A DNA stretch of 36,737 nt, from positions 1 through 36,737 of the forward strand of contig JAISEM010000022.1 in the NCBI GenBank assembly GCA_031264105.1, in the 5' to 3' direction. Shown in pieces: positions 8,831 through 32,515 of this stretch. The DNA is from Endomicrobium sp. (lineage in GTDB: Bacteria > Elusimicrobiota > Endomicrobiia > Endomicrobiales > Endomicrobiaceae). Below the pieces are notes generated by a model that saw only the letters and a program-made list of their open reading frames with translations, ran no database searches and had not been told where the DNA came from. The position numbers and the translations under genes are program-made. Positions within the stretch are counted from its first letter, which is position 1. The number at the start of each line of letters is the position of its first letter.

Positions 8831-8885
8831 CGGATCTCCTAGCAACAATCGGATTATCTATATAGGAATCAACTTTGAGATTATT

Positions 8886-10196
8886 TCATTTTTTAGATTG
8901 TTTCTCAATCAGCTTTTTTCTTAAGCAATCCAAAACAGTATTGACAGTTCTTTCTCTTATATCTTTACGTGTTCCAACAAAATTAAATTTAAAACTTTCA
9001 GTTCTCTTTTTGTCAGCAAAACCAACATAAACTAAACCTACGGGCTTGCCTTTTGATCCGCCGCACGGCCCTGCAATCCCAGTAACCGAAAAAGCGTAAT
9101 CGCTTCCTGTAAGATTTAAAACGCCTTTTGCCATTTCTTCTGCAGTCTCTTTGCTTACAGCTCCAAAATCTTTTATGATTTTTTCCTTAACCCCTAGAAT
9201 CTTAATTTTAGACTCATTGGAATAAGGTACTACTGAGCTCTTAAAATATAAAGAACTGCCAGAAATATCAGTAATAGCAGCAGCTATTTTTCCACCAGTA
9301 CAAGACTCGGCAAAAGAAACATTTTTCCTCTTTTGAATAAGAAGCTTCCCAACTATAGACGCAAGAGTATCTTCGTTATATCCAAAGATATTTTCTTTTA
9401 AAACATCGCTAAATCTTAAATTCAGATTTTTTATTGCGCTGTCTACGGCAAACTCATTAATTCCTGAAACTACAAATTTTATATCTACTATAGAACCACT
9501 AGCTAAAATACCAAACTCCACAGCTGCTTGCGAGTCCACAAATTTAGCTTCTTCAATAATAGGCTTTATTGCCTCTGCAACTGCAGACTCTGACAAACCA
9601 AACACGCGCAAAGAAATATTTTTTCTTATTCCTGAAGAATAACTTTTTAGAAACGGGACAATGTTTTCTTCAAACATCGGTTTCATTTCTCTTGGAGGGC
9701 CTGGAAGTAAAAATAAAGTCTTGCGATATTTTTTACCGTTTTCTTTAAATTCAAAATGCAACATTTGCCCAGGCGCTGTGCCTAAACGATTTTCCAAAAC
9801 TTTGGCGCCTTTAATAATATTTGCTTGTCTTTCATTGATTTTTGGAATTTTTGAGACTGATTTTCTAGAAAAGTATTCTTTTATAGATTTTAAAACTTTT
9901 TCATCACAATAAAGCGAGAGATCTAAACATTCTGCTGCAGTTTCAACAGTTATGTCATCAAAGGTTGGCCCTAGCCCACCAGTGACTATAATTACTTTAC
10001 TCCTTTCAAAAGCAAGATTAAACTGACCTGCTAGATCTTGTTTCCTATCGGTAACGTATGTAACATAAGACAATTCAAGTCCTATATTAAACACTTGCGA
10101 ACCTATATAAGCCGCATTTGTGTTAAGTTTTCCAGCGAGGAGTTCGTTTCCTGTACAAATAAGTTCTATTTTCACTAATTTAAAGACCGATAGCAT
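8886..10196 (-). CDS. cinA: CinA-like protein (competence/damage-inducible, nicotinamide-nucleotide amidase domain)
   Basis: Full-length CinA has an N-terminal molybdopterin-binding-like (COG1058) domain and a C-terminal nicotinamide-nucleotide amidase domain. The first shows [21 protein letters not shown] and [14 protein letters not shown]. The second shows [22 protein letters not shown] and [11 protein letters not shown]. The amidase recycles NMN; in some bacteria cinA is co-regulated with recA and competence genes. The annotated ATG at 10196 overlaps thrC by 17 bases. A GTG at 10175 gives the more family-like start [13 protein letters not shown]. Neither has a strong Shine-Dalgarno site, so the start is uncertain, but the protein is not. 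Confidence 0.93.
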
Positions 10197-11244
10197 CTAT
10201 TATATTTTTCATATTTGCTTTAACTTTTTTTGGTTTTACAGCATTAGAAACCGCCATATCCGGATCTTTTAGCCCGTGTCCAGTCAGTATGCATACAACT
10301 TTTCCTAACTTATTATCTTTAAAGTATCCTTGTTTAACATATTTTATAAGTCCAGCTATAGATGAAGCTGATGCAGGCTCGCAAAAAACACCTTCACTAA
10401 CAGCTACAATTCTATATGCTTCTAATATTTCATCGTCACTTACTTTATCTATAACACCACGCGACTCATCTCTTGCTTCTACTGCTGCCTTCCAAGAAGC
10501 AGGATTTCCTATCCTTATAGCCGTTGCTATTGTTTCAGGTTTTGCTATTGGGTGGCCACCAACTATTGGCGCAGCTCCAGCAGCTTGGAAACCCATCATT
10601 TTTGGTAAAGAATATTTAGAAGAATTTGCTATGTTATAATCTTTATACCCTTTCCAATATGCCGTAATATTGCCAGCGTTGCCAACAGGCATAAATTGAT
10701 AGTCCGGCGCTTGTCCTAAACTTTCGCATATTTCATATGCTGCTGTTTTTTGCCCTTCTATTCTAAAAGGGTTAACCGAATTAACCAGCGTGAGAGAATA
10801 TTTCTCGCTCAATTCTTTTGCAAAGTTCAATGCATCGTCGAAATTTCCATCTATTTCCAAAACTTCTGCGCCATGCATAACAGCTTGAGACAGCTTTCCC
10901 AAAGCTGTTTTGCCTTCAGGTATAAGAACAATACACTTTATGCCTGATCTTGCCGCATAAGCTGCCGCTGATGCAGAAGTGTTTCCTGTCGAAGCGCATA
11001 CAACGGCTTTACTTCCAGACTCAACAGCTTTTGAAACAGCCATTGTCATTCCTCTGTCTTTAAAAGAACCCGTTGGATTCATTCCTTCAAATTTAAAATA
11101 TATTTCTCCGTCAAATCCTATTTTGTTAGAAAGATTTCTAGCTTTTATAAGCGGAGTATTTCCTTCATGTAGAGATATAACCGGCGTATTCTCATTTACA
11201 GGTAAAAATTTCCTGTATCTTTCAATTAAACCTTTGTAATACAT
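10180..11244 (-). CDS. thrC: Threonine synthase
   Basis: ThrC converts O-phosphohomoserine to threonine using pyridoxal phosphate. The start [16 protein letters not shown], the EGNTPL motif, the PLP-binding Lys in [11 protein letters not shown] and the phosphate-cradling loop ([15 protein letters not shown]) are typical of the shorter, plant/archaeal-like ThrC form. A frame extends nine codons further to an ATG at 11271. The ATG at 11244 has AGGA eight bases upstream and matches the family start, so I choose it (354 residues). It is the first gene of the minus-strand run and overlaps cinA. No other threonine pathway gene is in the window. Confidence 0.93.
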
Positions 11245-11306
11245 TTCTTCTATCCTTTTGAAAAACAACATAAAATTTTATTTATTAATTTTATTATTTT
11301 TAGACT

Positions 11307-11338
11307 ATTAAAGCAATAAAAACACACAGAATTGTCAA
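11307..11338 (-). promoter_or_regulatory. Possible promoter for the thrC-led operon
   Basis: A perfect TTGACA reads on the minus strand at 11338-11333. The best downstream -10 is TTTAAT at 11312-11307, which leaves a spacer of 20 bases, longer than usual. The placement, about 60 bases ahead of thrC, is right; the spacing makes it doubtful. Confidence 0.3.
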
Positions 11339-11419
11339 TGCAAAGTTAAAAGAGGAGTGAAAAAAGGGATATTCCTTAATATTGCAAAACCATTTAAAAT
11401 TGTAGAATTCATATAGAGT

Positions 11420-11449
11420 TTCAAACGACCTTTATAAACAAAGTATAAT
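11420..11449 (+). promoter_or_regulatory. Promoter for two small ORFs
   Basis: TATAAT at 11444-11449 with a weak -35 (TTCAAA at 11420-11425, spacer 18) points rightward. The expected transcript would start near 11456 and reach the two overlapping small ORFs at 11512 and 11574. The -10 is perfect; the -35 is only partial. Confidence 0.5.
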
Positions 11450-11511
11450 GAATAATATTCTTTACGCTATTTTTTTTAGGTTTACAAGTCTAAATTTCTT
11501 AGGAGATGAAA

Positions 11512-11583
11512 ATGAAAAATAAGTTTCTTTATATTACCGCTATTACCCCTCCCCCTTCATTATTGGAGGGAAAATGTTTTTAA
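11512..11583 (+). CDS. Possible 23-residue leader peptide
   Basis: The ATG at 11512 follows a good AGGAG site (11501-11505) with a 6-base spacing. The predicted peptide is MKNKFLYITAITPPPSLLEG plus KCF. Its frame runs through the hairpin that covers the next ORF's ribosome binding site and ends 10 bases inside that ORF. This layout is typical of translational coupling. No homologue is recognised; the case rests on the ribosome site, the promoter and the overlap. Confidence 0.35.
   Translation: MKNKFLYITAITPPPSLLEGKCF
11547..11570 (+). promoter_or_regulatory. Hairpin sequestering the ribosome binding site of the 57-residue ORF
   Basis: CCCTCC at 11547-11552 is perfectly complementary to GGAGGG at 11565-11570, which is the ribosome binding site of the ORF starting at 11574. 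The loop has 12 bases. Ribosomes translating the upstream 23-codon ORF would melt it. Confidence 0.45.
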
Positions 11584-11738
11584 TTTTCAACAAGTTTTTT
11601 GTTCTTTTTTTCTCCCTCTTTTTTCTTGTCTCTTTTTATAATATTTCCTACGCATCAAGAGATCAATCTCAATATAGCGCTGAACCAATATTTTGCTTTA
11701 AAAATAAAGGATGCAAAAATTCAAAAGTGGAAGCAAAA

Positions 11739-11747
<9 letters not shown>
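11574..11747 (+). CDS. Small hydrophobic or secreted peptide, 57 residues, unknown
   Basis: The ATG at 11574 has a strong GGAGGG site three bases upstream. The peptide begins MFLIFNKFFVLFFSLFFLVS and continues to a plausible signal-peptide end (YNISYA). A polar tail of about 30 residues follows, with two cysteines, rich in Lys and Asn. It could be a secreted peptide or a single-span membrane peptide. Its last codons and TAA lie inside the tRNA-Ala gene on the opposite strand. I recognise no family. It may be a real small gene, a membrane-toxin-like peptide, or the remnant of a longer exported protein. Confidence 0.45.
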
Positions 11748-11811
<64 letters not shown>

Positions 11812-11864
11812 AACAAATATAAATTGAAGATTTTAAAGACGAATTCTCTAGATTTGCATATAAG

Positions 11865-11894
11865 ATTATACCAGAAAGCCATCTGGAATGCCAA
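11865..11894 (-). promoter_or_regulatory. Promoter of tRNA-Ala
   Basis: The minus strand reads TTGGCA (11894-11889), an 18-base spacer and a perfect TATAAT (11870-11865), about 54 bases before the mature tRNA 5' end. It begins right after the hydG stop codon. Confidence 0.7.
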
Positions 11895-11895
11895 A

Positions 11896-13281
11896 CTATA
11901 TATACTCGTCTCTTATGTCGTTATCTATGTTTGTAAAAAACTTTTCTAAAACTTTTATACTAGTATTATCAAGTTTAGCTTTATGTTCATCAATGAGTTT
12001 ATAGCCCAAAGTTTTAACTTCAGGAGTTGCAAAATCTTCAAGATATTCCTTTAGAGTTACTAAAGCATTAATGTCGCATATATGCTTTATAGCGCCATGT
12101 TTTGCTAAACCCATAAAATGCTCGCCTGTTCTATTTTTGCGATAACACGCTGCACAAAAACTTGGTATTAATCCCTGCGACAATAAAGATTGTACTATTT
12201 GATTTAACGTACGTTGGTCGTTAAGACTAAACTGCCTCTCAAGTTTGTCATTATGTCGCGAAGAATCTTCATACCCGCCAGGCGTAACCTTTGATTCTGC
12301 GCTTATTTGAGAAACACCTAAATTTACAAGCGTATCTCTAATCTGCACAGTTTCTCTTGTAGACATTATTATTCCAGTATAAGGAACAGAAAGTCTAAGA
12401 ACAGCAACTAACTTTTTGAAATCTTCTTCACAAATAGGATATTGAGGGTTTTCTGCATATACGGAGCCAGGAGCTGGCTCTACGCGAGGAACTGAAATTG
12501 TATGAGGCCCAACACTATAAGTTTTTTCTAAATATTCTATATGCATTAACATTGCAAGAATTTCAAAGCGATAATCGTAAAGACCAAGTAAAGGCCCTAT
12601 ACCAACGTCATCAATACCAGCTTTAAAAGCATTATCAACAGCGTTTAGGCGGCTGTCAGGATCTGTTTTTGCGCCTGCAATATGAAGTTTTCTATAAGTA
12701 GCATCGTGGTAAGTTTCTTGAAATATCTGATAAGTACCTATACCAGACTGTTTTAACATTTTAAACTGTTGAGCACTTAAAGGCGCAACATTAACATTTA
12801 CTCTCTTTATTTTATTGCCTTTATATTCTGTATCATAAATAGCTTTTACAGCATCAACATAATAATTTATATTTTCTTTTGAAGAAGCCATTTCCCCTGC
12901 AACCATCAAAATGCGCTTATGCCCTCTTTTAAGAAGTATTTGCGTCTCTTGTTTTATCTCTTGAATAGAAAGTTTTTTTCTTACCGTATGCTTATTATTT
13001 GATGCAAAACCACAATACACACAACTGTTAGCGCAAAGATTACTTATGTATAAAGGGACAAACATTACCACACGCTTGCCATATATCGCATTTTTAACAT
13101 GTTTGGCAGCGTCATAAATCTTTTCTAGTAAAGACGCATCTTTAACAGACAAAAGTTTTGCAGATTCTTCAAGAGTAAGCCTTTTTAAAAGTTTTGTCTT
13201 TTTTAAAATATCGTCTATTTCTTGACGTGAAACATTTAAATTCAATAAAGAGTTTATTTTTGATTCATCTATATGTTTCAA
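11896..13281 (-). CDS. hydG: [FeFe]-hydrogenase maturase HydG
   Basis: HydG is a radical SAM tyrosine lyase that makes the CO and cyanide ligands of the [FeFe]-hydrogenase H-cluster. The N-terminal cluster motif CANSCVYC gives Cys 83, 87 and 90. The feature that separates HydG from its relative ThiH is the second cluster site near the C-terminus, CX2CX22C. It is present here as Cys 376, 379 and 402, with the HydG phrases CYRKNRTGEHFMGLAKHG and LVTLKEYLEDF. The start codon is TTG with a stop codon directly before it, and GGGTGA lies five bases upstream; no nearby ATG exists. It follows thrS by 51 bases. hydE, hydF and the hydrogenase itself are not in the window. Confidence 0.95.
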   Translation of the reverse strand: MKHIDESKINSLLNLNVSRQEIDDILKKTKLLKRLTLEESAKLLSVKDASLLEKIYDAAKHVKNAIYGKRVVMFVPLYISNLCANSCVYCGFASNNKHTVRKKLSIQEIKQETQILLKRGHKRILMVAGEMASSKENINYYVDAVKAIYDTEYKGNKIKRVNVNVAPLSAQQFKMLKQSGIGTYQIFQETYHDATYRKLHIAGAKTDPDSRLNAVDNAFKAGIDDVGIGPLLGLYDYRFEILAMLMHIEYLEKTYSVGPHTISVPRVEPAPGSVYAENPQYPICEEDFKKLVAVLRLSVPYTGIIMSTRETVQIRDTLVNLGVSQISAESKVTPGGYEDSSRHNDKLERQFSLNDQRTLNQIVQSLLSQGLIPSFCAACYRKNRTGEHFMGLAKHGAIKHICDINALVTLKEYLEDFATPEVKTLGYKLIDEHKAKLDNTSIKVLEKFFTNIDNDIRDEYI

Positions 13282-15956: not shown

Positions 15957-17051
15957 ATGAACGAAAAAGAGTTGTCTTTATTTAGACTTATTTTATCAAC
16001 TGATATTGGATCTATAAGATTTTTTAGACTGCTTGACACATTTGGCGATGCAGAGTCTATACTTAAAGCAGAAAAGAAACATCTTATATCTGTTGACGGT
16101 ATAGGGAGTGTCCTTTCCGAGTCTATTCTTAATGCTAAAACTTCAAGAAAGGCTGAAAGAGAGCTTGAAGTTGCCGAAAAAAATAATATTTCTATTATGC
16201 TATACAATAGTAAAAATTATCCAAAGTCTCTAAAAGAACTGCCTGCTAAACCTCTTGTTTTATATATAAAAGGCACTATTTTAGATAAAGATTTTGATTC
16301 AATATCAATAGTTGGATCCAGAAAGATAAGTAATTATGGCAAAACTGTAACTTCAGAATTTGCATCTTATTTTGCTAAGAAAGAAATAACTATAGTTTCA
16401 GGGCTTGCAAGAGGCGTTGATACTTTAGCGCATATTACAGCTTTAGAAAATAAATCAAGAACTATAGCTGTACTTGGTAATGGACTTCTTGTAAATTATC
16501 CTCCTGAAAATAAAAAATTACAAGAGCTAATCTCACAAAATGGAGCAGTTATAAGCGAATTCCCTTTAAACCAACTGCCTGATAAAGGAACTTTTCCAAG
16601 AAGAAATAGAATCATAGCTGGATTTTCAAGAGCTACATTGCTTACTGAAGCTGGAATTGGAAGCGGAGCTACCATAACAGCAAGATTTTGTGCAGAATAT
16701 GGGAAAGATGTTTTTGCTATTCCTGGAAGCATTTATTCAAAAGTCTCAAAAGGAACAAATGATCTTATACAAAATGGAGCTTATATGGCCCTAAGCCCAG
16801 AAAATATGAGCGATCAACTTGATTGGATTCTCAAAAAAGAAATAAAGACTCAAAGAAATATAAGCGGCTTAGAAAAACTTGATTTAGCGATACTTAATTT
16901 AATAGAAAGTGAGAGCGAAGGTCTTCCAAGTGATGTAATTGCTGAAAAGTTAAGCGTTAATATTTCAGAAATAGCAACGCCACTTTTGAGACTGGAAATA
17001 ACCGGTCTTATAAAAAATACTCCCGGACAAACATATATAAGGAAGTATTAA
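15957..17051 (+). CDS. dprA: DNA-processing protein DprA
   Basis: DprA loads RecA onto single-stranded DNA taken up during natural transformation. The Rossmann-like core is complete: SIVGSRKISNYGK, SGLARGVDTLAH, AVLGNGL, SEFPL, the signature FPRRNRIIAGFSRATLLTEA, and GSGATITARFAxEYG-type residues leading to FAIPGS. Before it is a helix-hairpin-helix/SAM-like N-terminal part (about 1-75), and after it a winged-helix C-terminal domain (about 300-364). Length is normal and there is no lesion. It begins the plus-strand block dprA-topA-xer. The start has no Shine-Dalgarno site but a promoter immediately upstream. Confidence 0.96.
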   Translation: MNEKELSLFRLILSTDIGSIRFFRLLDTFGDAESILKAEKKHLISVDGIGSVLSESILNAKTSRKAERELEVAEKNNISIMLYNSKNYPKSLKELPAKPLVLYIKGTILDKDFDSISIVGSRKISNYGKTVTSEFASYFAKKEITIVSGLARGVDTLAHITALENKSRTIAVLGNGLLVNYPPENKKLQELISQNGAVISEFPLNQLPDKGTFPRRNRIIAGFSRATLLTEAGIGSGATITARFCAEYGKDVFAIPGSIYSKVSKGTNDLIQNGAYMALSPENMSDQLDWILKKEIKTQRNISGLEKLDLAILNLIESESEGLPSDVIAEKLSVNISEIATPLLRLEITGLIKNTPGQTYIRKY

Positions 17052-20184: not shown

Positions 20185-21099
20185 ATGACACAAAAAGAGT
20201 ATTTTCAACTTTTAATGGAAGAAACAGGTTGCAAGCGTTCTGAAGCAGAGCTTGCGCTTGAGCTTTCAAGTAATAATTTTGAGAAAGCCATTACAACAAT
20301 AGGTTTTATTTTAAAATTTATTACAACGTTCAAAATGAAAATAATATTCCTAAAAGAAAACATATACGGACTTATACATATAGCTGTAAACATAAAAACA
20401 GCAGAAATTGCACGTTTTAGCGTAACATTTTCTTGCAATCCGACTATTTATGAAATTACCACGAACATAGATTGGTTCTCTTATGAAAAAGCTATTTTCT
20501 CGGCCCGTTTAAACTCAGGGGTTATGGAGACATACACAAAAGAAACCGAAGAAAAACTAAAAACTTATATTCAAAAATCCTTAAAAGAACTTATTGTTAT
20601 TTCTCCAGAGAACATCTCTTCAATATTAAAAACTTTTTTTCAGCCAAACGATGTTTATATAGAAATTGAGAACGAGGAATTAAATTTAACTCAATTCAAA
20701 AAACTTCCAGATTATAGCTTGAACCAAAATTTAATATCATCTTCGGATTACGATCTGGGATTTGTAAAACTTGACGTCAAAGTTCTTGAAGATAATGATG
20801 GGAAGTCTGTAAAAAAAATTGCTGAAGGCGACACTGTATTATCAATAATAACTGATGAAAGAGATTTAACGCATTATATTGCTCATTTGATTGGAGGAAT
20901 AGATGATGGCAAAATATGTCCAATCCCTGCGACTGTAAAGAAAATCTTACATAAAGATAACGATTTTGAAATATATTTAAATTACACAACTTCTATAGTT
21001 GGTTTAGCAAAAACAAAAAGCAGTACAAAAGTAAAAGTTTTAGAGCCAAAACATCAGCTCTGGTGGAAAAAAATGCTGCCATGGCGAGATTTATTTTGA
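20185..21099 (+). CDS. Unknown protein with UBA-like N-terminus
   Basis: No family is recognised with confidence. Residues 1-40 (EYFQLLMEETGCKRSEAELA followed by LELSSNNFEKAI) resemble the three-helix UBA-like fold found at the start of elongation factor Ts and NAC proteins. The next 100 residues mix beta strands with a helix. The C-terminal third, from GDTVLSIITDERDL to the end, is strand-rich and ends in a Trp/Lys cluster (HQLWWKKMLPW). It has no signal peptide or membrane span, so it is probably cytosolic. Codon use and composition match its neighbours. It follows the recombinase by 32 bases and is probably co-transcribed. Its length and undamaged frame argue that it is a real, maintained gene. 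Confidence 0.8.
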   Translation: MTQKEYFQLLMEETGCKRSEAELALELSSNNFEKAITTIGFILKFITTFKMKIIFLKENIYGLIHIAVNIKTAEIARFSVTFSCNPTIYEITTNIDWFSYEKAIFSARLNSGVMETYTKETEEKLKTYIQKSLKELIVISPENISSILKTFFQPNDVYIEIENEELNLTQFKKLPDYSLNQNLISSSDYDLGFVKLDVKVLEDNDGKSVKKIAEGDTVLSIITDERDLTHYIAHLIGGIDDGKICPIPATVKKILHKDNDFEIYLNYTTSIVGLAKTKSSTKVKVLEPKHQLWWKKMLPWRDLF

Positions 21100-22194
21100 G
21101 TTTAATTTAAAGTATTCCTCACATCTACCTTGAGCATTTTGGCGAAGATTATAATAGTATAAAGAAATATCATTTTCATGGAAAACACCCGATGGGAATA
21201 ATGATCTTGAATCTTTTGGAGAACTCCACTTTTCGCGGTTTACCGTAGAACAAATAACGACGTCTTTCTTATAATTTATCTTAGCGTCTGCAATATGCTC
21301 ATATTTTTTTACTTTTCCATTATCAACGTACAATGAGCCTAGATTTTCTTCCTTTGAAGCATAATCTTCAGTAGTTTTCCATGAAATAGGGTTAATAATA
21401 ACAGCGTTGTCTGCGCTGGGATTGCAAGAGGATTTATTGCGTCTATGTATTGGAGCTTCTGCGTTATAGCATATAACTACACCTAAATCCCCTTAGAATT
21501 CTTGGCAGGCTTAACATGGGGATATCTGGCATAATATTTTTACCTAATGGATCTCCAATTGCATAAGCAGCTATCATTCTCCTATAAACTTCTGGATTTG
21601 CTTTCATGTAGCTAGCTAAAATTTCCAATATCATAATTGAACCTTGAGAATGTCCAGCTAAAATGAAAGGTCTCCCGTCGTTTAAATTTTTAATATAGTA
21701 ATCAAAAGCCGCAATTATATCTGTCTTTGGAACTCCTCGAAAGTAAATAACAGATTCGAGCATCCAAGTTTTAAAGCATAAGCGGCGTTTAGCTGCCTAT
21801 AATAATATAATAAGGAGCAAAAATATTACCAACTGTTTCAAAAGCTGAAGCCCTAAATTTTAACCAATATTCGGCGCCTTGCCTCATTTGTTTGTTATTT
21901 ATGTCGCAAATAGGATATCCTTCATTTGCTTTCCAAGCAGTAGGATATATAAAAAAATACATCTACTTTATCTTTCAATTCTTCTTTTTTAGGCAGAGCA
22001 ATCCAATTATTAATATCTGAGTAATCGGTCGGACTTATTTTATCTCCCTATACTGGGATATAAAAAGAATTGCCGCCTTGGTATCCCAATAACGACGATT
22101 CTTTTTCAGTTTTGCCGCTTGCGGCATTCAAATTAAAAGATAAAAGTAATAAAGAACAAACTGTGACAGAAATCACTCTATTTTTAGTAAACAT
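21091..22194 (-). pseudogene. Decayed DUF3089 alpha/beta hydrolase, exported
   Basis: The original gene can be followed from end to end. An intact start (ATG at 22194 with GGAGG upstream) opens a signal peptide MFTKNRVISVTVCSLLLLSF. An in-frame TAG follows at codon 49 (22050-22048), then a frame change at a 7-base A/T run (21951-21957) before PTAWKANEGYPICDINNKQM. An apparent 8-base duplication lies near 21798-21813. The catalytic-Ser region ILAGHSQGS is intact in another frame, and at least two more shifts occur around 21765 and 21480-21530. The C-terminal part (VICSTVNREKW, YYYNLRQNAQGR) is in yet another frame. These motifs match the DUF3089 hydrolase family. It overlaps the convergent 304-residue gene by nine bases. 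Confidence 0.9.
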
Positions 22195-22216: not shown

Positions 22217-23584
22217 TTAATTTCTTATTATTTTAATTGCCTGCTCCAATGTCTCTGCTGCAAATATTTCTATTTTACCTTTATAAGATAAACTTTTCAA
22301 ATTGCCTTTTGATATAACAGCTTTTTTAAATCCGTGTTTCTCAGCTTCATATAAACGCTCTGCAGACAATGCTACAGACCGAATTTCTCCGGCAAGACCA
22401 ATCTCGCCAAAAATAGCAATATTTTTTGGACATATAAAATTAGAATTTGCTGAAGCTATAGCACAAGCAACGGCCAAATCCACAGAAGTTTCTTTAATCT
22501 TAACACCGCCTGCGATGTTTACAAAAACATCTTGCGCTTCAAGAGCCATGCCTATTCTTTTTTCTAAAACAGCTATAAGTATTATTATACGATTGGCATC
22601 ATAGCCTGAAACCATCCTTCGTGGCATTCCAAAAGAAGTACGCGACGTTAATGCTTGCACTTCTAACAGTATAGGCCTTGTCCCTTCCATAGCAACTGTT
22701 ACAACGTTCCCCGGCGCATTAACCGTGCGTTCTCCTAAAAAAATTAAAGAAGGATTAGAAACTTCTCTTAGCCCTTCAGAATACATTTCAAAAATGCCTA
22801 TTTCGCTTGTAGGGCCAAATCTATTTTTATAAGCTCTTAAAATTCTGTAAGTATGTTGACGTTCATTTTCAAAGTATAAGACAGTATCTACTATATGCTC
22901 TAAAACTCTAGGCCCTGCTAAATCCCCATCTTTTGTAACATGACCTAAAATAAATACAGTAATATTCTTAGACTTTGCTATTCTTAGAAGTTCTGCAGCG
23001 GTTTCCCTTACTTGGCCAACAGTCCCTGGAGCACTTGTAAGTTCTGGGTGATATGTCGTTTGTATTGAATCTATTATTAGAAATTGCGGTAATATTTTGT
23101 TTACGCCATCTATAATGTTTTGAAGGTTTGTTTCAGAAGCCAAAAATATATTATCTTTCTTTATTTTGAGACGCTCAGCTCTAGATTTAACCTGTGATAG
23201 AGACTCTTCGCCCGATATATAAAGAACAGTACCATGTTCACTTAAAGATCCTGAAATATGAAGCATCAATGTAGATTTTCCAATGCCTGGCGCGCCACCA
23301 AGCAGTATCAGAGAACCTTGCGCTACGCCACCGCCTATCATATTGTCAAATTCAGATATATTGGTTTTATATCTAGAAAAGTTCTCATCTGAAACTTTGT
23401 TCAGTTTTAAAACTTCGGAAGAAAATCCAGTCAATTGTCTTACATTGGAAGAACTTTTAGAAGATACAGAAAATTTCTCTTCCGTAAAGCTATTCCAAGC
23501 TCCGCAAGACGGACATTTGCCAAGCCATTGAGCAGACTCATATCCACATTGTTGACATAAAAATTTAGTTTTTTGTTTTTTCAT
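22217..23584 (-). CDS. radA: DNA repair protein RadA
   Basis: RadA is a RecA-related, DnaB-like helicase that helps branch migration during recombination, including natural transformation. It has an N-terminal C4 zinc finger (CQQCGYESAQWLGKCPSC) and Walker A GGAPGIGKST. The RadA signature KNRFG is present in RAYKNRFGPTSEIG. A C-terminal Lon-protease-like domain (GGVKIKETSVDLAVA, GEIGLAGEIRSV) completes it. Length 455 is standard. It is the last gene of the long minus-strand operon, eight bases after mlaD. Confidence 0.97.
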   Translation of the reverse strand: MKKQKTKFLCQQCGYESAQWLGKCPSCGAWNSFTEEKFSVSSKSSSNVRQLTGFSSEVLKLNKVSDENFSRYKTNISEFDNMIGGGVAQGSLILLGGAPGIGKSTLMLHISGSLSEHGTVLYISGEESLSQVKSRAERLKIKKDNIFLASETNLQNIIDGVNKILPQFLIIDSIQTTYHPELTSAPGTVGQVRETAAELLRIAKSKNITVFILGHVTKDGDLAGPRVLEHIVDTVLYFENERQHTYRILRAYKNRFGPTSEIGIFEMYSEGLREVSNPSLIFLGERTVNAPGNVVTVAMEGTRPILLEVQALTSRTSFGMPRRMVSGYDANRIIILIAVLEKRIGMALEAQDVFVNIAGGVKIKETSVDLAVACAIASANSNFICPKNIAIFGEIGLAGEIRSVALSAERLYEAEKHGFKKAVISKGNLKSLSYKGKIEIFAAETLEQAIKIIRN

Positions 23585-23592
23585 AAGACTAT

Positions 23593-24909
23593 TTACTTCG
23601 CAGTAATTGCCGCAATACTTATAATACCAAGCAATGCAGCCAAATCTTTATCGTCAATCTCAAGTTTTATATAAGGCGTAACGGCTGTTTTATAAGTGGC
23701 ATCTTCAAGAGCAATTCCTACATAAATCCATTCCGCAATGCCAACTCTTACGCCAACGTCAACTACAGGACCATGCTTTTCTCTTCCAAAGTTATATACG
23801 TTCAAATGAGCTTTAATTCTTCTAAATTCTGCCCAAATAGGGTCAAGGAAAGAGTATCCAAAACCAACACCCGCTTTTCCTCTAATAACACCGCCATATA
23901 CTTCAGATTTTTCAGCTCTAAAGCCAAGCAAAGCATCAAGCTTATTTATATTGTCTTTTTCAGAATTTTCTACTGTAGAATGATCTGCCGCATTAGAAAC
24001 TCCAACATAATAGAATTTATTATGGCTTGGCATTATGCTTATGCCAACATCACTTCTGAACTTTTTGTCCTTCATATCATATCTTCCAGTATAATCCCAA
24101 CTTAACTGAAGTTTATTAGATTTGCCTATAGTGTCTTTTAATCCTTTAGCTGTTTCTTTAGCACAAGCAAATGTCTCTTTTAAATCTTTGCTTATTTGCT
24201 CGTCATTTATAAGTGTAGAAACCATGCCGTTTCCTCCAGATATACGATCTATCAAAGAATCAAGCTTTTCTGAAACATTTCTAATTCGTACTACTACGGC
24301 CCTCAAATCGTCTCTATTTTCTGAAGAAATAGCAGCAAAATCTCGTGAAAATTTATTCAAATTATTTATTATCTCAGAAATATTTTTATTTTCTAAATCA
24401 AGGTTTTGCATAACATCTTTCAAAGAGTATATAGCGTCTGCAAGATTTTCCATCATATCGCCATACTCTTCATTATTTATCGCTTTATCTGCTCTTGTTG
24501 AAATATTCTTTAACATTAGTTCTAAACTTGAAGACGCTTCAGTAAAAATATAATCGCCCTCTTTTAATTCTACTGAGTTCAAATCTCCCGGACTAATTTC
24601 AATATATTTTGTTCCTATAACACCCATAGAAACAATTCTGGCAACACCATTTCTGTACAATTTTACATTCTTATCTATTGACAACTTAAGATTAGCTTGG
24701 GAATCTTCTAAAGAAACTGCTCTAAGAACGCCTACATCGACACCTGCTATTTTAACTTTAGCTTTTTTTGTAACTCCCGAAATATTGTCAAATTTAGCGT
24801 AAACACTGTAAGTCCTTTTTAAAGAAAATGATCCTGCTGCTATTACAGAAACAGCTATAGCTATACTTCCCAAAAATACAAAAATTCCTAACTTTAATTG
24901 ATCTCTCAT
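23593..24909 (-). CDS. mlaD: MlaD-like MCE protein with long stalk and predicted C-terminal beta-barrel
   Basis: The chain has one N-terminal membrane anchor (about 8-28) and a single MCE domain (about 35-115; FDNISGVTKKAKVKIAGVDV and GVIGTKYIEISPG). A long helical, coiled-coil-like stalk follows (about 125-270). Then come about 165 residues of alternating strands: LQLSWDYTGRYDM, RSDVGISIM, KFYYVGVSN, GVGFGYSFLDPIWAEF, VVDVGVRVGIAEW, and VTPYIKLEID near the end. E. coli MlaD is about 180 residues and has no such part. A comparable layout (MCE, stalk, barrel) is known for the diderm Firmicute Veillonella, where MlaD spans the envelope. It overlaps mlaF by four bases (ATGA). The barrel is my reading of the strand pattern. 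Confidence 0.88.
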   Translation of the reverse strand: MRDQLKLGIFVFLGSIAIAVSVIAAGSFSLKRTYSVYAKFDNISGVTKKAKVKIAGVDVGVLRAVSLEDSQANLKLSIDKNVKLYRNGVARIVSMGVIGTKYIEISPGDLNSVELKEGDYIFTEASSSLELMLKNISTRADKAINNEEYGDMMENLADAIYSLKDVMQNLDLENKNISEIINNLNKFSRDFAAISSENRDDLRAVVVRIRNVSEKLDSLIDRISGGNGMVSTLINDEQISKDLKETFACAKETAKGLKDTIGKSNKLQLSWDYTGRYDMKDKKFRSDVGISIMPSHNKFYYVGVSNAADHSTVENSEKDNINKLDALLGFRAEKSEVYGGVIRGKAGVGFGYSFLDPIWAEFRRIKAHLNVYNFGREKHGPVVDVGVRVGIAEWIYVGIALEDATYKTAVTPYIKLEIDDKDLAALLGIISIAAITAK

Positions 24910-25676
24910 ATCCTTTCCATTTCAAATCTTTTTTCTATAAGTATAGGTCCTTGACTTGAACCTCTCACAAATTGTTTTACATACTCGTTTTTAGTATTGC
25001 GAACTTCATCTGGAGTACCGCTAAAAATAATATTTCCTCCATAAAGCATCATTATTCTATCAGCTATTTTATATGCTAACTTCATATCGTGCGTTACGAC
25101 TATAGATGTAATATGTAAATGTTTTTTTAAATTTATTATAAGATCACTTATAACATCAGACATTATTGGGTCAAGACCAGTGGTAGGCTCATCGTATAAA
25201 ACATACTCTGGTTGGTAAGCTATAGCTCTTGCAAGTCCTACTCTTTTTTTCATTCCGCCAGAAAGACTTGACGGATTTAAATGTTCAACATTTTTAAGTC
25301 CCACCATCGCAAGACACTGTTTTACTCTTTGTTTTATTTCACTTTCATTAAGAGTTGTAAGATTTCTTAAACCGAAAGCTACGTTTTCAAAAATATTTAA
25401 AGAATCAAAAAGAGCTACTTCCTGAAATACATATCCTATTTTTTTACGTATTTCATGAAGCTTCTCTAAAGAACATTTTGTTATATCAATACCATCAATT
25501 TCAATAAAACCAGAATCAGGCTTTACAAGACCTATAATATTCTTTAACAAGATGCTTTTGCCAGCGCCTGAAAAACCCATAATAATCAATACTTCTCCTG
25601 CGCGAACGTCTAAATGTACACCGTTCAACACTACATTACTACCAAAATTTTTGTAAATATTATTAACTTTTATCAT
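24906..25676 (-). CDS. mlaF: Lipid-transport ABC ATPase MlaF
   Basis: This is the ATPase of an MCE-type phospholipid transporter. Walker A is GFSGAGKS, the signature is LSGGMKKRVGLARA, and Walker B is YVLYDEPTTGLDP, followed by the switch His in VVTHDM. The 256-residue length fits MlaF. It lies between the permease gene mlaE and mlaD and overlaps mlaD by ATGA, so the three form a complete inner-membrane complex. The start ATG has no strong Shine-Dalgarno site, suggesting translation coupled to mlaE. Confidence 0.96.
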   Translation of the reverse strand: MIKVNNIYKNFGSNVVLNGVHLDVRAGEVLIIMGFSGAGKSILLKNIIGLVKPDSGFIEIDGIDITKCSLEKLHEIRKKIGYVFQEVALFDSLNIFENVAFGLRNLTTLNESEIKQRVKQCLAMVGLKNVEHLNPSSLSGGMKKRVGLARAIAYQPEYVLYDEPTTGLDPIMSDVISDLIINLKKHLHITSIVVTHDMKLAYKIADRIMMLYGGNIIFSGTPDEVRNTKNEYVKQFVRGSSQGPILIEKRFEMERI

Positions 25677-25700
25677 ATATAAATTACTATTATTTATAAA

Positions 25701-26522
25701 CTATTTTATTCTTAAAGATACTAGCAAATTCGTCAAAAAATAATCTGATATAAGGATAAAAACCATTGACGTCATAACAGAACTTGTCGTTGCTTTACCG
25801 ACACCCTCAGCTCCGCCTTTAGCATTGAATCCCTTATGACAAGCTACTATTACAATAACTAATGCAAAGAAAAAAGATTTTATAAATCCATGAAGGAAAG
25901 TGCGAACACCTATAAAATTCAAAGCTTCGCTCCAAAATGCATTTGAAGAAATATCCCAAGTATTAGTTGCAAGAATCATACCGCCATATATGCCAACTAT
26001 GTTTGAAATAACAGTAAGTATTGGAAGCATAAAGAAACAGGCTAAAAATCTTGGCACAGCAAGATATCTTACAGGATTTGTGCCAAGCGTATATAAAGCA
26101 TCTAGCTGTTCAGTAACTTTCATTGAACCGACTTCAGCTGTAATTGCGGCACCGACTCTTCCTGTTACAACTATAGCTGTAAGAACCGGTCCTAATTCTA
26201 TAGCCATAGAAAAACTTGTTATCGTACCGACATATACAGGCTCATTAAACATATTGCTTGTCGTAGAACCTACCTGGAGAGCTAAAACCATACCCATAAA
26301 AAAAGACGTAAGCAATATTATCGGTAAAGAACTCCAGCCAACTTCTACCATCTGCATGACAGTGTTTTTCCATGAAACAAAACCTTTAAATATATCGTTG
26401 ATTGTTTCTTGCGCCATTTTAGTAGCTTTGCCTAAACCTTCTATTGGCACAAAAGATGTATGCTTTAATTTCTCTCTAAAACGTTCAAACTCCATGATTT
26501 TTCTTACACTTGCTTTAATCAT
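25701..26522 (-). CDS. mlaE: Lipid-transport permease MlaE
   Basis: The permease of the MlaE/YrbE family has several membrane spans and the conserved loops VEVGWSSLPIILLTSFFMGM, GPVLTAIVVTGRVGAAITAE and ALYTLGTNPVRYLAVPR. The EQL helix and GPVLTA regions are typical of the family. The N-terminus has an amphipathic stretch (FERFREKLKHTSF). It starts five bases after alr and precedes mlaF by 24 bases. Separate MlaA, MlaB and MlaC genes are not in the window. Confidence 0.95.
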   Translation of the reverse strand: MIKASVRKIMEFERFREKLKHTSFVPIEGLGKATKMAQETINDIFKGFVSWKNTVMQMVEVGWSSLPIILLTSFFMGMVLALQVGSTTSNMFNEPVYVGTITSFSMAIELGPVLTAIVVTGRVGAAITAEVGSMKVTEQLDALYTLGTNPVRYLAVPRFLACFFMLPILTVISNIVGIYGGMILATNTWDISSNAFWSEALNFIGVRTFLHGFIKSFFFALVIVIVACHKGFNAKGGAEGVGKATTSSVMTSMVFILISDYFLTNLLVSLRIK

Positions 26523-26527
26523 AGTAA

Positions 26528-27697
26528 TTAAACTACAATCCTAGGAACATGCGGAGATATTGAGCATGCGACCTCATAATTTATTGTATCTTGAAGCTTT
26601 GCAAGCTCATCGGTTTTTATTTGTTCTGTTCCTTGGGTCCCTATAATAACAACTTCATCGCCAAGAGATACTCCTTTTACATCAGTTACATCTATCATAG
26701 TCATATCCATTGTAATTCTTCCTGCAATAGGGCAACGCTTACCGCCAACCAAAACATCGCCTCTATTTGACAAAAGTCTATTAAGTCCATCTGCGTATCC
26801 AACAGGTATAGTAGCTATAACAGAAGTTTTTTTTGTAACAAAAGTTCTTCCATAGCTTACGCAAAAACCAGATTGAACTTTCTTTAGGAAGGTTATTTTT
26901 GTCTTCCAAGATAAGACCGGCCTTAGCTTTAAGAATCTATCGGAATACTTGAAAGGGTTAAGCCCATAAAGGCTTAATCCCGGACGCACCATATCTAAGT
27001 GAGATTTTTTATATTTAAATAATGCTGTGGAATTTGCTGAATGAGCAATAAATTTTAATCCTAAATTTACTTTTGCAAATTTAACTATTTTTGTAAAAAT
27101 ATCAAGCTGTATTTTTGTAAAAATAGGATCTAAATCAGCGACAGCAAAATGCGTATACATACCTGTCATACAAACCTCTTGAGTTTGGGCTATCTTTTGT
27201 AAAAGATGATGAACTGCTTCTGGCAATATGCCTATTCTCCCCATGCCTGTATCTATCTGTAAATGAAAATTTATTTTTTTATTTAGACTAATAGCTAAAG
27301 CTTCTAATGCAGTAAATTCTGTAACTGTAGAAATTGTCGGTGTAAGGCAATGAGCTATAGCAATTTGAAAATTTTCAAGAGGGAAAATATTTCCCAGAAT
27401 TAAAATATTTGATTTAATTCCTGCTTCTCTAAATTGTATTCCTTCCTCAAGACAAGAAACAGCAAGCCATTGTAGTCCAGCAAATTGAGCTTCTTTCGCA
27501 AGAGCTACTCCTCCGTGCCCATAAGCGTTGGCTTTGATAACAGCCATAACTTTAGTGTCTTTAGCAAGATATCCTCTGATTTTTTTTAGATTGAAGTGAA
27601 AATCACTTTTGTCAATTTCTACCCAGGTTTGTCTAAAAAATACTCTGGGTCTTTTATATGTCGCAGCTAACGCCGAAGGAGGCGGTTGTTTTTTCAT
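26528..27697 (-). CDS. alr: Alanine racemase
   Basis: Alr makes D-alanine for peptidoglycan. The PLP-binding Lys is in VIKANAYGHG and the second catalytic base is Tyr in SYGRTF. GRITMDMTMIDV and the D-alanine-site phrases near the C-terminus are present. The frame extends back to a TTG at 27751, but the ATG at 27697 has AGGA eight bases upstream and begins shortly before the conserved TWVEIDKSDF, so I choose it. It still overlaps the end of dnaB by 44 bases, so the two are co-translated. The gene implies a peptidoglycan-containing wall. Confidence 0.95.
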   Translation of the reverse strand: MKKQPPPSALAATYKRPRVFFRQTWVEIDKSDFHFNLKKIRGYLAKDTKVMAVIKANAYGHGGVALAKEAQFAGLQWLAVSCLEEGIQFREAGIKSNILILGNIFPLENFQIAIAHCLTPTISTVTEFTALEALAISLNKKINFHLQIDTGMGRIGILPEAVHHLLQKIAQTQEVCMTGMYTHFAVADLDPIFTKIQLDIFTKIVKFAKVNLGLKFIAHSANSTALFKYKKSHLDMVRPGLSLYGLNPFKYSDRFLKLRPVLSWKTKITFLKKVQSGFCVSYGRTFVTKKTSVIATIPVGYADGLNRLLSNRGDVLVGGKRCPIAGRITMDMTMIDVTDVKGVSLGDEVVIIGTQGTEQIKTDELAKLQDTINYEVACSISPHVPRIVV

Positions 27698-29066
27698 TAA
27701 TAATATCCTGTAGTTTGGATTCATCAGAGAACTTAGTGTATTCGCCTTCAAAGATTAAATTGATATCTCCCGTAGGTCCATTTCTCTGTTTGCCTATTAT
27801 TAAAGTGGCTTTTTTTTGTAAATTCGGATCTTCTCTATTATAATATCCTTCTCTATAAAGCATAGCAACTACGTCTGCATCTTGTTCAATAGCCCCAGAA
27901 TCTCTTAAGTCTGAAAGTTGAGGTCTACTGTCTTTTCTTCCTCTATCTTCGGTCCTTCTTGATAACTGAGAAAGCACTATTACAGGAATATCCAAATCTT
28001 TAGCTAAAGCTTTAAGAGATCTTGAAATTTCAGAAACTTCTTGTTGACGCGACTCAAGCTTCCGCCCTGATGCTCGTATAAACTGAATATAATCTATAAT
28101 AACTAAAGATAAGGGCGTTCCCTTGCCTTTAAGTTCTGTAGCAAGCTTTCTTGCCCTTGCTCTTAATTCAGTAACGCTTATATCAGAGTCATCATCAATA
28201 AAAATTGGAGCTTCTTCAATTTTTCTGGCAGCATCAGTAAGTCCTGGCCAATCAGAACTGCTATAATGACCATTTCTAAGTTTTACTGAATTAACTCTTG
28301 CTAAAGAAGCTAAAAATCTTAACATTAAAGCATCTTGTTTCATTTCAAGAGAAAAAATGGCAACAGGTTTTTTTTGGTCTACTGCCACATGCTCGGCAAT
28401 GTTTAAAGCAAAAGCTGTTTTACCCATAGACGGACGAGCAGCTAAAATTATAAGTTCAGACGGATGAAGGCCTGCGGTTTTTGCATCTAAATCTGCAAAT
28501 CCGGTTGCAAGACCAGAAATATCTTTTGGATTAGAATGCAATTTTTCAAGTTTTTGGAGCATAGGCATGACAAGATTAGAAACACTTGAAAAACCTTTCT
28601 TGCTTTTTCTCTGTGAAATATTAAATAAAGTCGCCTGTGATTTATCTAATATTTCCTCAGGAGAGTTTTGCTCATTAAAAGCATCAGTAACTATTTCTGA
28701 TCCTGTATTTATAAGCTGTCTGGCTATTGATTTATCTTTTATGATATAAGCATAAGGCTCAACGTTAGCTGCAGTTTGTACAGAGTTGATTAAATTTGCA
28801 AGATAACTTGCTCCGCCGACTTCAGCAAACAATCCATTTTTTTTCAAAGCCTCTGCTACGGTAAACAAGTCTACTGATTGATTTTCAATGTATAGATCGT
28901 GAATTGCTAAAAAGATTTGTCTGTGTATTTCTTTATAAAAATCGCCATCGTTTATTATATCTATAACTTTCAAAATGGCTTCTTTTTCTATAAGCATTGA
29001 GCCTAAGACAGCCATTTCTACATCTATAGCTTGAGGCGGAACCTTCTCTATTATATTATTTGCCAT
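27654..29066 (-). CDS. dnaB: Replicative DNA helicase DnaB
   Basis: DnaB unwinds the replication fork as a hexamer. The N-terminal domain begins PPQAIDVEMAVLGSMLIE. The RecA-like domain has Walker A ARPSMGKT, LVIIDYIQF and the Arg-finger region QLSRRTEDR, and ends with FEGEYTKF. The ORF can be read from a TTG at 29102; the ATG at 29066 (MANNIIEKVPPQ) matches family starts. No intein or insertion is present, and the tail is short. It follows rplI, an order common in many bacteria (rpsF-ssb-rpsR-rplI-dnaB). Confidence 0.97.
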   Translation of the reverse strand: MANNIIEKVPPQAIDVEMAVLGSMLIEKEAILKVIDIINDGDFYKEIHRQIFLAIHDLYIENQSVDLFTVAEALKKNGLFAEVGGASYLANLINSVQTAANVEPYAYIIKDKSIARQLINTGSEIVTDAFNEQNSPEEILDKSQATLFNISQRKSKKGFSSVSNLVMPMLQKLEKLHSNPKDISGLATGFADLDAKTAGLHPSELIILAARPSMGKTAFALNIAEHVAVDQKKPVAIFSLEMKQDALMLRFLASLARVNSVKLRNGHYSSSDWPGLTDAARKIEEAPIFIDDDSDISVTELRARARKLATELKGKGTPLSLVIIDYIQFIRASGRKLESRQQEVSEISRSLKALAKDLDIPVIVLSQLSRRTEDRGRKDSRPQLSDLRDSGAIEQDADVVAMLYREGYYNREDPNLQKKATLIIGKQRNGPTGDINLIFEGEYTKFSDESKLQDIINEKTTASFGVSCDI

Positions 29067-30928: not shown

Positions 30929-32515
30929 TTAATGCCTTACTAATGGAGCTTGGAATGGTTTGGCAGAAAGGATTTCGCTTTTTGTCTTTAGACTTTGATT
31001 TAAAAAGTCAAGTATGCTTTTCTTACCTTCACTTTCAGAAACAACTATAGCTTGAAATCCCCAATTAGCAGGATTTCCTCTTATATATTTACTTGGTATT
31101 ACCACCGAATTTCCATTTACAACAAGGTTATAAATGATTGACGCGCCATCAACGGAATATTTATATAATACTGCTTTATCTTTATATATCCTCAATGCAT
31201 ATTCCCAACCAGAATCAGCAATTAAAAATCCGCTTACTCCCGCAATAAAAGATGACCCTCCCATTCCAGAAATACCGTTTAAGTCTATATAAAAATCTAC
31301 AAAAGAAACTTCATCGTTCCAGTAGTTGCCATTAAAAGATAAGCTTATTTTTATGCCATCGTCTTTTGACGAAATTTTAACAAGTCTTAATAAACCTTCG
31401 TTACGTATTGAAACTCCCTCTGAAATAATTTCAACTGAAGTTTGTCTGTTTGAAACGGCTACTGTTGCTTTTTGACTATCGACATTTGCTGCTACTATTT
31501 TTTTGTCACTATCTTTGACATTTATTGTTTGAAGTCCCAAAAGACGGAAAATATTATTGTATGCTGCGTCAAAAACTCTCTTTCCAGAAGTACTATTTGA
31601 AGATGCGCCTTCTAATACATCTTGTCCGCACAAATAAACAAGTTCGCTTTGCGCATTTGAATATACAGTTTCACTGAAAGAAGAGGAATCTAAATAATTA
31701 TTAATAGCTTGCGCCGCTGAGTGAAGTTTTTCAGAAATATTGGGGTTTAAGGAGATTTTTTCGAAAGATATATCTTTTTTCTGCAAAATATCATTTTTAG
31801 TTTTGACAATATACAAAGGTGTCGCGGGCTTTATATGCCTGCTGCCGTCAAAAAGACCTATTGTATACTCCATAAGTTTAACATTTTGCAAATGTTTTTT
31901 TGTAAGTAAAACAGGCACTATCCTTTCACGTTTAGACTCAAGCCATTTTGCAATTTCCTGTTGGCTATGAGGGAAATTTTTATATAAAGAAAAAACTACA
32001 ACGCCGTCAACGTAATACGCACCATAAATATTACCTTCTATATTATCAGCGTTAACCCAAGACAAACCTCTATCTGCGAAATAATAAAGAATATCATGTG
32101 ATATTTTTGTTGAACTTAAAAATATTCCAAAATTTTCTTTATTGGTATTACCGACAAATGATGATAAATTATCCGAAATATAGTTTTCAAAAATGCTATT
32201 CCTATTATATTTTTTCTTAGAATCTGCTTTTGAAAATTCTGAAAGAACAGTCAAAGCAGGATCAGGACTGAACGATGCCGCAAGTTCAACTTTACCGACT
32301 GAAACAAATTCTTCTAAATTTTCAGATATTGAAGACGTACAGTCATGAGGTACAGCGATACAAAAACGCGATGATAAAACTATTTTATCTAATACTTCGT
32401 TTGAGATATCGGCTGTTTCTGCAAAAAAAACTATATATTTGCTCTCCAAACCAAAACAAGTCAAACTTAAAAACAACAAAAAAAATCCAATAAAAGAAAC
32501 GCTTTTTATATTCAT
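30929..32515 (-). CDS. Exported protein, possibly carbohydrate-binding
   Basis: An N-terminal signal peptide (MNIKSVSFIGFFLLFLSLTC, ending near FG) marks export. The middle contains SHDILYYFADRGLSWVNADN and a long helical stretch, loosely like glycoside hydrolase family 57 or deacetylase relatives, but I cannot point to catalytic residues. The last 150 residues (FVDFYIDLNGISGMGGSSFI, GWEYALRIYKDKAVLYKYS, NWGFQAIVVSE) resemble the beta-sandwich found at the C-terminus of glucodextranase-type enzymes. A role in glycan binding or breakdown is therefore an inference. The gene is divergent from another exported, carbohydrate-related gene, 102 bases away. The -10 box nearly touches the ATG and there is no Shine-Dalgarno site. 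Confidence 0.75.
   Translation of the reverse strand: MNIKSVSFIGFFLLFLSLTCFGLESKYIVFFAETADISNEVLDKIVLSSRFCIAVPHDCTSSISENLEEFVSVGKVELAASFSPDPALTVLSEFSKADSKKKYNRNSIFENYISDNLSSFVGNTNKENFGIFLSSTKISHDILYYFADRGLSWVNADNIEGNIYGAYYVDGVVVFSLYKNFPHSQQEIAKWLESKRERIVPVLLTKKHLQNVKLMEYTIGLFDGSRHIKPATPLYIVKTKNDILQKKDISFEKISLNPNISEKLHSAAQAINNYLDSSSFSETVYSNAQSELVYLCGQDVLEGASSNSTSGKRVFDAAYNNIFRLLGLQTINVKDSDKKIVAANVDSQKATVAVSNRQTSVEIISEGVSIRNEGLLRLVKISSKDDGIKISLSFNGNYWNDEVSFVDFYIDLNGISGMGGSSFIAGVSGFLIADSGWEYALRIYKDKAVLYKYSVDGASIIYNLVVNGNSVVIPSKYIRGNPANWGFQAIVVSESEGKKSILDFLNQSLKTKSEILSAKPFQAPLVRH

What the first reader, a model, noticed from the sequence alone, without database searches (positions are those of the whole stretch)
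23593..26522. MlaE-MlaF-MlaD set in which MlaD appears to bridge both membranes by itself
Seen: mlaE, mlaF and mlaD are adjacent, and MlaD is 438 residues with anchor, MCE domain, long helical stalk and a strand-rich C-terminal third of barrel-like pattern. Known: E. coli MlaD is short and needs soluble MlaC and outer-membrane MlaA; a long MlaD ending in a beta-barrel is known in the diderm Firmicute Veillonella. Inference: this lineage uses a one-piece lipid conduit from inner to outer membrane, without MlaABC.
Basis: partly seen in the sequence, partly recalled or inferred. Interest (0 to 1): 0.6.

Follow-up and report, generated by a model that had tools for sequence, protein, structure and literature searches.

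The report
One-piece lipid bridge in termite-gut symbiont
[quoted passage not shown] this kind of system is already known and looks ancestral in its phylum, but one branch of the phylum has swapped it, in the same chromosomal spot, for a completely different set of lipid-carrier genes.

Summary
Observation confirmed: mlaE, mlaF and a 438-aa mlaD lie together at 23593-26522 (-). The genome is a Candidatus Endomicrobiellum (Elusimicrobiota). MlaD has an anchor, one MCE domain, about 136 helical residues, ten amphipathic strands and a conserved hydrophobic tail. AlphaFold failed (pLDDT 32, thin alignment), but covariation in 158 homologues pairs neighbouring strands antiparallel (p=1.5e-4), as in an outer-membrane barrel; closure was not resolved. 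MlaA, MlaC and STAS_2 (MlaB-type) are undetected in this genome; MlaA is absent from 326 of 341 Elusimicrobiota genomes. This is the "MlaEFD-only" long-MlaD architecture described for Veillonella and proposed to be ancestral (Grasekamp 2023): a new member of a known kind. New here: dnaB-alr-mlaEFD-radA recurs across the phylum; one clade has a barrel-less MlaD; in one clade (family f21) an mlaA-mlaC-MMPL operon occupies the same alr-radA slot while MlaE and MlaD are gone genome-wide; and in reduced Endomicrobiellum genomes the operon decays although LpxC can remain. The in-place swap is the most interesting result, and an indirect argument that the bridge does the job of the MlaA-MlaC shuttle.

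The parts
25701..26522 (-). mlaE, ABC permease, 273 aa
   Evidence: PF02405 1.3e-75; TIGR00056 over cut-off
24906..25676 (-). mlaF, ABC ATPase, 256 aa, with Walker A GFSGAGKS, signature LSGGMKKR and Walker B LYDEP visible in the translation
   Evidence: PF00005 1.6e-35; MlaF model NF008809 matches at 2.1e-59, below its E. coli-type cut-off; translation
23593..24909 (-). long mlaD, 438 aa
24838..24903 (-). MlaD residues 3-24: N-terminal inner-membrane anchor helix
   Evidence: hydrophobic stretch in sequence; helix in low-confidence model
24586..24816 (-). MlaD residues 32-108: single MCE domain
   Evidence: PF02470; aligns with solved MlaD chains 7ch8, 6zy2, 6xbd
24124..24531 (-). MlaD residues 127-262: long helical stalk, inferred to form the periplasmic tunnel
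   Evidence: helices in model (low confidence); no period-2 pattern
23650..24117 (-). MlaD residues 265-420: ten amphipathic strands, inferred outer-membrane beta-barrel
   Evidence: alternation profile; antiparallel covariation of adjacent strands p=1.5e-4
23596..23649 (-). MlaD residues 421-438: conserved hydrophobic tail after the last strand (D-x-D-L-A-x-L-x-G motif, starting at D420)
   Evidence: G428 97% and D422 93% conserved in 158 homologues; absent in L043, whose protein ends FTPYLSFKFKF
26528..27751 (-). alr, upstream boundary of the conserved slot (ORF start uncertain, overlaps dnaB ORF)
   Evidence: synteny and similarity across relatives; the G089 homologue is an alanine racemase by Pfam
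22217..23584 (-). radA, downstream boundary of the conserved slot
   Evidence: synteny and similarity across relatives

Best explanation
A three-component MlaEFD lipid transporter with a trans-envelope MlaD. MlaE and MlaF form the inner-membrane ABC core; six MlaD subunits are anchored there, their MCE domains make a ring, their long helices a hydrophobic tunnel across the periplasm, and their C-terminal strands fold into outer-membrane barrels that dock the tunnel to the outer membrane, so that phospholipids pass between the membranes (by analogy mainly outer to inner) without the MlaA lipoprotein or the MlaC shuttle. Shown here: gene content, domain order, conservation, absence of MlaA, MlaC and STAS_2, and the antiparallel amphipathic strand pattern. 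Inferred from Veillonella and MCE structures: hexamer, tunnel, barrel closure, outer-membrane insertion, lipid cargo and direction.
For: Domains. MlaA and MlaC absent from the own genome and from 50 of 51 tested genomes; MlaA absent from 326 of 341 Elusimicrobiota; STAS_2 absent from the own genome. LpxC, a BamA-type Omp85 and TamB are present in the own genome, so there is an LPS outer membrane and a way to insert barrels. Covariation: the top six of 45 strand pairs with the full alphabet are sequence-adjacent antiparallel pairs; adjacent versus non-adjacent p=1.5e-4; adjacent antiparallel versus adjacent parallel p=0.0039; paired positions match in hydrophobicity, p=0.002. One homologue lacking the tail (L043) ends on an outer-membrane-protein-like last strand FTPYLSFKFKF. 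The dnaB-alr-mlaE-mlaF-mlaD-radA order recurs across families. In family f21 the same slot holds mlaA-mlaC-MMPL, and every MlaA-positive genome that lacks MlaD (8 of 15) also lacks MlaE.
Against: Both AlphaFold jobs gave pLDDT about 32, so no 3D model supports the barrel. Closure between strands 1 and 10 ranks only 14th of 36. No Pfam, NCBIfam or PDB barrel family matches the C-terminal domain. Relatives in f11, f13 and f14 keep MlaEF with a barrel-less 270-302 aa MlaD and no MlaA or MlaC, so the barrel is not indispensable to the transporter. The operon is decayed or absent in several Endomicrobiellum.
Confidence: 0.8

Rival explanations
1. The C-terminal strands form an open or soluble periplasmic beta-domain (or bind an outer-membrane partner) rather than a membrane barrel, so MlaD reaches but does not enter the outer membrane.
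For: Barrel closure unresolved; no match to known barrel families; barrel-less MlaD versions persist in f11/f13/f14.
Against: Hydrophobic residues alternate and pair in register, as for a lipid-facing wall; the last strand resembles an outer-membrane-protein ending, with one homologue truly ending there; Veillonella's equivalent domain fractionates with the outer membrane (PMC10665443).
Confidence: 0.13
2. The system is a relic under decay in this endosymbiont, with no present function.
For: mlaE, mlaF, mlaD and radA are broken in Endomicrobium sp. Gx485_bin172, mlaD and mlaE are broken in G017, and both are absent from several genomes of 0.9 Mb or less.
Against: All three genes are intact in the window; mlaD dN/dS is 0.15-0.36 in comparisons that include the window, and the barrel region 0.17-0.22.
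Confidence: 0.07
3. A separate, unrecognised outer-membrane or periplasmic partner (non-homologous to MlaA and MlaC) completes the pathway.
For: Profile searches miss non-homologous partners; the barrel-less lineages must manage somehow.
Against: No extra gene lies in the conserved dnaB-alr-EFD-radA block in the families inspected.
Confidence: 0.15

Closest known systems
Long MlaD / MlaEFD of Veillonella parvula (Grasekamp et al. 2023, PMC10665443)
   Same: mlaEFD operon, no MlaA or MlaC; MlaD about 420-440 aa with anchor, one MCE domain, about 140-150 helical residues and a C-terminal domain of ten strands; LPS outer membrane; TamB present in the genome
   Different: Elusimicrobiota instead of Firmicutes; extra conserved hydrophobic tail after strand ten (the paper notes helical extensions in some members); neighbours are alr and radA, not tolC and tamB; endosymbiont genus in which the operon is being lost
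E. coli MlaABCDEF
   Same: MlaE, MlaF and the MCE domain of MlaD
   Different: MlaD is 183 aa without stalk or barrel; needs MlaB, MlaC and MlaA, which are not detected here
MCE tunnels PqiB / LetB and mycobacterial Mce1
   Same: MCE-based trans-envelope tunnel idea; Mce1 subunits also have one MCE domain and long helices (8fed matched)
   Different: PqiB and LetB stack several MCE rings (own knowledge); Mce1 is a heterohexamer without full barrels (PMC10665443)
mlaA-mlaC-MMPL operon of Elusimicrobiota family f21 (this study, L111, L128, L135, L141)
   Same: occupies the identical alr-radA slot
   Different: no MlaE or MlaD in the genome; RND/MMPL transporter in place of the ABC core, shuttle in place of a bridge

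Membership tests
Long-MlaD (trans-envelope) MlaEFD system | mlaE, mlaF and mlaD together | tested here: met
Long-MlaD (trans-envelope) MlaEFD system | MlaD with anchor, MCE domain, long helical region and C-terminal strand domain, about 375-440 aa | tested here: met
   438 aa
Long-MlaD (trans-envelope) MlaEFD system | C-terminal domain is a closed outer-membrane beta-barrel | tested here: inconclusive
   antiparallel amphipathic ten-strand pattern supported; closure unresolved, AlphaFold failed
Long-MlaD (trans-envelope) MlaEFD system | MlaA and MlaC absent | tested here: met
Long-MlaD (trans-envelope) MlaEFD system | hexamer with hydrophobic tunnel; outer-membrane localisation of the C-terminus | not testable with these tools
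   needs multimer modelling or fractionation
Proteobacterial six-part Mla system | MlaA, MlaB and MlaC present | tested here: not met
   MlaA, MlaC and STAS_2 not found in the own genome; PF01740 STAS not searched
Proteobacterial six-part Mla system | short MlaD over the TIGR04430 cut-off | tested here: not met
   89.8 bits against a cut-off of 135

The most novel reading that the evidence does not exclude
Within Elusimicrobiota family f21, the mlaEFD genes with the one-piece bridge were replaced in their own chromosomal slot by an mlaA-mlaC-MMPL operon, which would be an ABC-free lipid-trafficking route (outer-membrane extractor, periplasmic shuttle, RND-type inner-membrane pump) functionally interchangeable with the bridge.
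Probability: 0.5. Interest if true: 0.65.

Novelty: new member of a known kind. Interest (0 to 1): 0.42.

Why it matters
It adds a phylum-wide data set to the claim that a three-gene, bridge-type Mla system is the ancestral bacterial form, and gives two natural experiments: a clade that kept the ABC core but has no barrel, and a clade that replaced the whole bridge in place with MlaA, MlaC and an MMPL pump. The second makes it directly testable whether bridge and shuttle do the same job, and whether an RND pump can drive MlaA-MlaC. The loss series in Endomicrobiellum shows when an intracellular diderm stops needing lipid-asymmetry maintenance even though LpxC remains.

Tried and rejected
More diverse homologues from whole genomes are outside the stated input rule of that tool and were not submitted. 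A first covariation run on 82 sequences (Neff 59) was no better than its parallel control and was discarded; 158 sequences (Neff 100) gave a signal. A search of viral contigs for extra homologues could not be started for lack of conserved blocks; plasmids hold only MCE-domain matches, none covering the barrel. Idea that MlaA excludes long MlaD strictly: rejected, because seven MlaA-positive genomes also carry MlaD and MlaE, although the negative association is strong (Fisher p=4e-5, not corrected for phylogeny). Idea that G089's MlaA and MlaC are contamination: rejected, since they sit between alr and radA of the conserved Elusimicrobiota block, repeated in three other genomes.

Full report
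WHAT IS THERE. The minus strand of the window carries mlaE (25701-26522, 273 aa), mlaF (24906-25676, 256 aa) and mlaD (23593-24909, 438 aa), with mlaF and mlaD overlapping by 4 bases. Family searches confirm all three; the MCE domain occupies residues 32-108 and occurs once in the whole genome. The nearest named relatives are Candidatus Endomicrobiellum guadaloupense (89% protein identity), E. porotermitis and E. devescovinae, termite-flagellate endosymbionts of the Elusimicrobiota; the own genome is 986,526 bases in 54 contigs, 82% complete.

MLAD ANATOMY. Residues 3-24 are the anchor, 32-108 the MCE domain, about 127-262 a helical stalk, 265-420 ten strands of alternating polarity, 421-438 a conserved tail. 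In 82 Elusimicrobiota homologues the alternation is plain; with 158 homologues (effective number 100) the period-2 pattern of residues 263-420 stands 3.9 standard deviations above column shuffles, while the helical stalk shows none. Mean-field covariation places the best antiparallel ladders on sequence-adjacent strands: the top six of 45 strand pairs with the full alphabet, p=1.5e-4, antiparallel better than parallel for the same pairs (p=0.0039), and paired positions matched in hydrophobicity (p=0.002). This is what an up-and-down membrane barrel predicts, and ten is the strand number reported for Veillonella (PMC10665443). Pairing of strand 1 with strand 10 was not resolved (rank 14 of 36), so closure is inferred. 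One homologue (L043) has no tail and ends FTPYLSFKFKF, an outer-membrane-protein-like last strand. AlphaFold with the permitted eight sequences failed twice. No Pfam, NCBIfam or PDB family matches the strand domain.

MISSING PARTNERS. MlaC and MlaA models find nothing in the own genome or in 50 of 51 tested genomes; across all 341 Elusimicrobiota genomes held, MlaA is found in 15, none of them Endomicrobiellum. STAS_2 (MlaB type) is absent from the own genome (PF01740 was not searched). LpxC, Omp85/BamA and TamB are present, so an LPS-bearing outer membrane and barrel insertion are plausible. A published survey reports that LptD and BamBCD are absent from all Endomicrobiaceae (PMC11257099).

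HOW IT PROBABLY WORKS. By analogy with Veillonella MlaEFD, where the isolated C-terminal domain fractionates with the outer membrane and mla mutants behave as lipid-asymmetry mutants (PMC10665443), and with solved MCE hexamers: an ABC core at the inner membrane, a hexameric MCE ring and helical tunnel, and barrels holding the far end in the outer membrane. Hexamer, tunnel, cargo and direction are inferred, not shown here.

PHYLUM-WIDE CONTEXT. The order dnaB-alr-mlaE-mlaF-mlaD(long)-radA is found in families f1, f3, f5, f7, f9, f12, f15-f20, f25 and f29, with small gaps where the fetched stretch ends or a gene was not recognised by the simple scan, and so is most simply ancestral to the phylum, in agreement with the published view that long-MlaD MlaEFD is ancestral (PMC10665443). 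Families f11, f13 and f14 keep the genes but encode a 270-302 aa MlaD that stops after the stalk; they form one nested clade (support 0.974 in a tree of Alr, RadA and DnaB), without MlaA or MlaC in the members tested, so the barrel was most simply lost there.

IN-PLACE REPLACEMENT. In family f21, genomes G089, G255, G256 and G258 have mlaA-mlaC-MMPL in exactly the alr-radA slot, with rplI, dnaB, alr, radA, a PIN/TRAM-like gene and ispD/ispF around it (the last names are read from the sequences, not searched); domains were confirmed for G089 (MlaA 1e-59, MlaC 1.3e-39, MMPL 9.7e-28). Their sister G260 still has mlaEFD in the slot, and the clade with the new content has support 0.998. All eight genomes that have MlaA but no MlaD also lack MlaE; all seven with both MlaA and MlaD have MlaE. 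The association of MlaA with MlaD absence is strong (odds ratio 11, Fisher p=4e-5; p=9e-4 in high-quality genomes; no phylogenetic correction). In other families the cassette lies elsewhere in the genome, as if it moves as a unit. The simplest reading is a non-homologous replacement of a bridge by a shuttle. No paper holding MlaA, MlaC and MMPL together was found in the open library; subscription literature was not searched, and from memory hopanoid clusters pair an MlaC-like HpnM with the RND protein HpnN.

DECAY IN THE SYMBIONTS. In genus g1 (Endomicrobiellum) 28 of 42 genomes have an MCE match and 14, all of 0.9 Mb or less and 52-85% complete, have none. Endomicrobium sp. Gx485_bin172 (L009) has broken mlaE, mlaF, mlaD and radA beside intact dnaB and alr; G017 has a broken mlaD with nine in-frame stops and fragmentary mlaE and lpxC. 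G092, G098, G106 and G114 lack MlaE and MlaD yet keep a full-length LpxC match. In the window the genes are intact and under purifying selection (mlaD dN/dS 0.15-0.36 in comparisons with the window).

VERDICT. As a system it is a new member of a known kind. The unexpected part is the in-place swap in another family of the phylum, which deserves a follow-up of its own.

Noticed in passing
L111:8460-12439 (G089), L128:4028-7956, L135:5494-9402, L141:about 8500-12583: mlaA-mlaC-MMPL operon in the alr-radA slot where mlaEFD sits in the rest of the phylum; genomes lack MlaE and MlaD.
   Followed up: yes
L134 (G257), 9074-9967: mlaA alone in the alr-radA slot, with a divergent mlaEFD (24% MlaE, 281-aa MlaD) elsewhere in the genome (L242).
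   Followed up: partly
L105:4998-5903, L106:4626-5438, L107:5001-5813, L109:4935-5747: Barrel-less 270-302 aa MlaD in the same slot, families f13 and f11; most members carry a second MlaE/MlaD set.
   Followed up: partly
L111:11645-12439: The MlaA of G089 begins MRILFLVAVLGVGTGARSVRAQEAAP, without a cysteine, so it may not be a lipoprotein.
   Followed up: no
L043 (G074) and L031 (G001): Two Endomicrobiellum MlaD proteins end at or near strand ten, without the conserved tail; in L031 through an in-frame stop.
   Followed up: partly
L112 and L218 (G017): The mlaE remnant after alr lies about 260 kb from the mlaF-mlaD remnant before radA, so the operon was split by a rearrangement as well as broken.
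   Followed up: partly
window 21464-21763 (-): 99-aa fragment matching only the middle of DUF3089 (alpha/beta hydrolase-like), probably a gene remnant.
   Followed up: no
window 15957-17051 (+): Intact dprA in an intracellular symbiont with a reduced genome.
   Followed up: no
window 30929-32515 (-) and 20185-21099 (+): 528-aa and 304-aa ORFs without a Pfam match.
   Followed up: no
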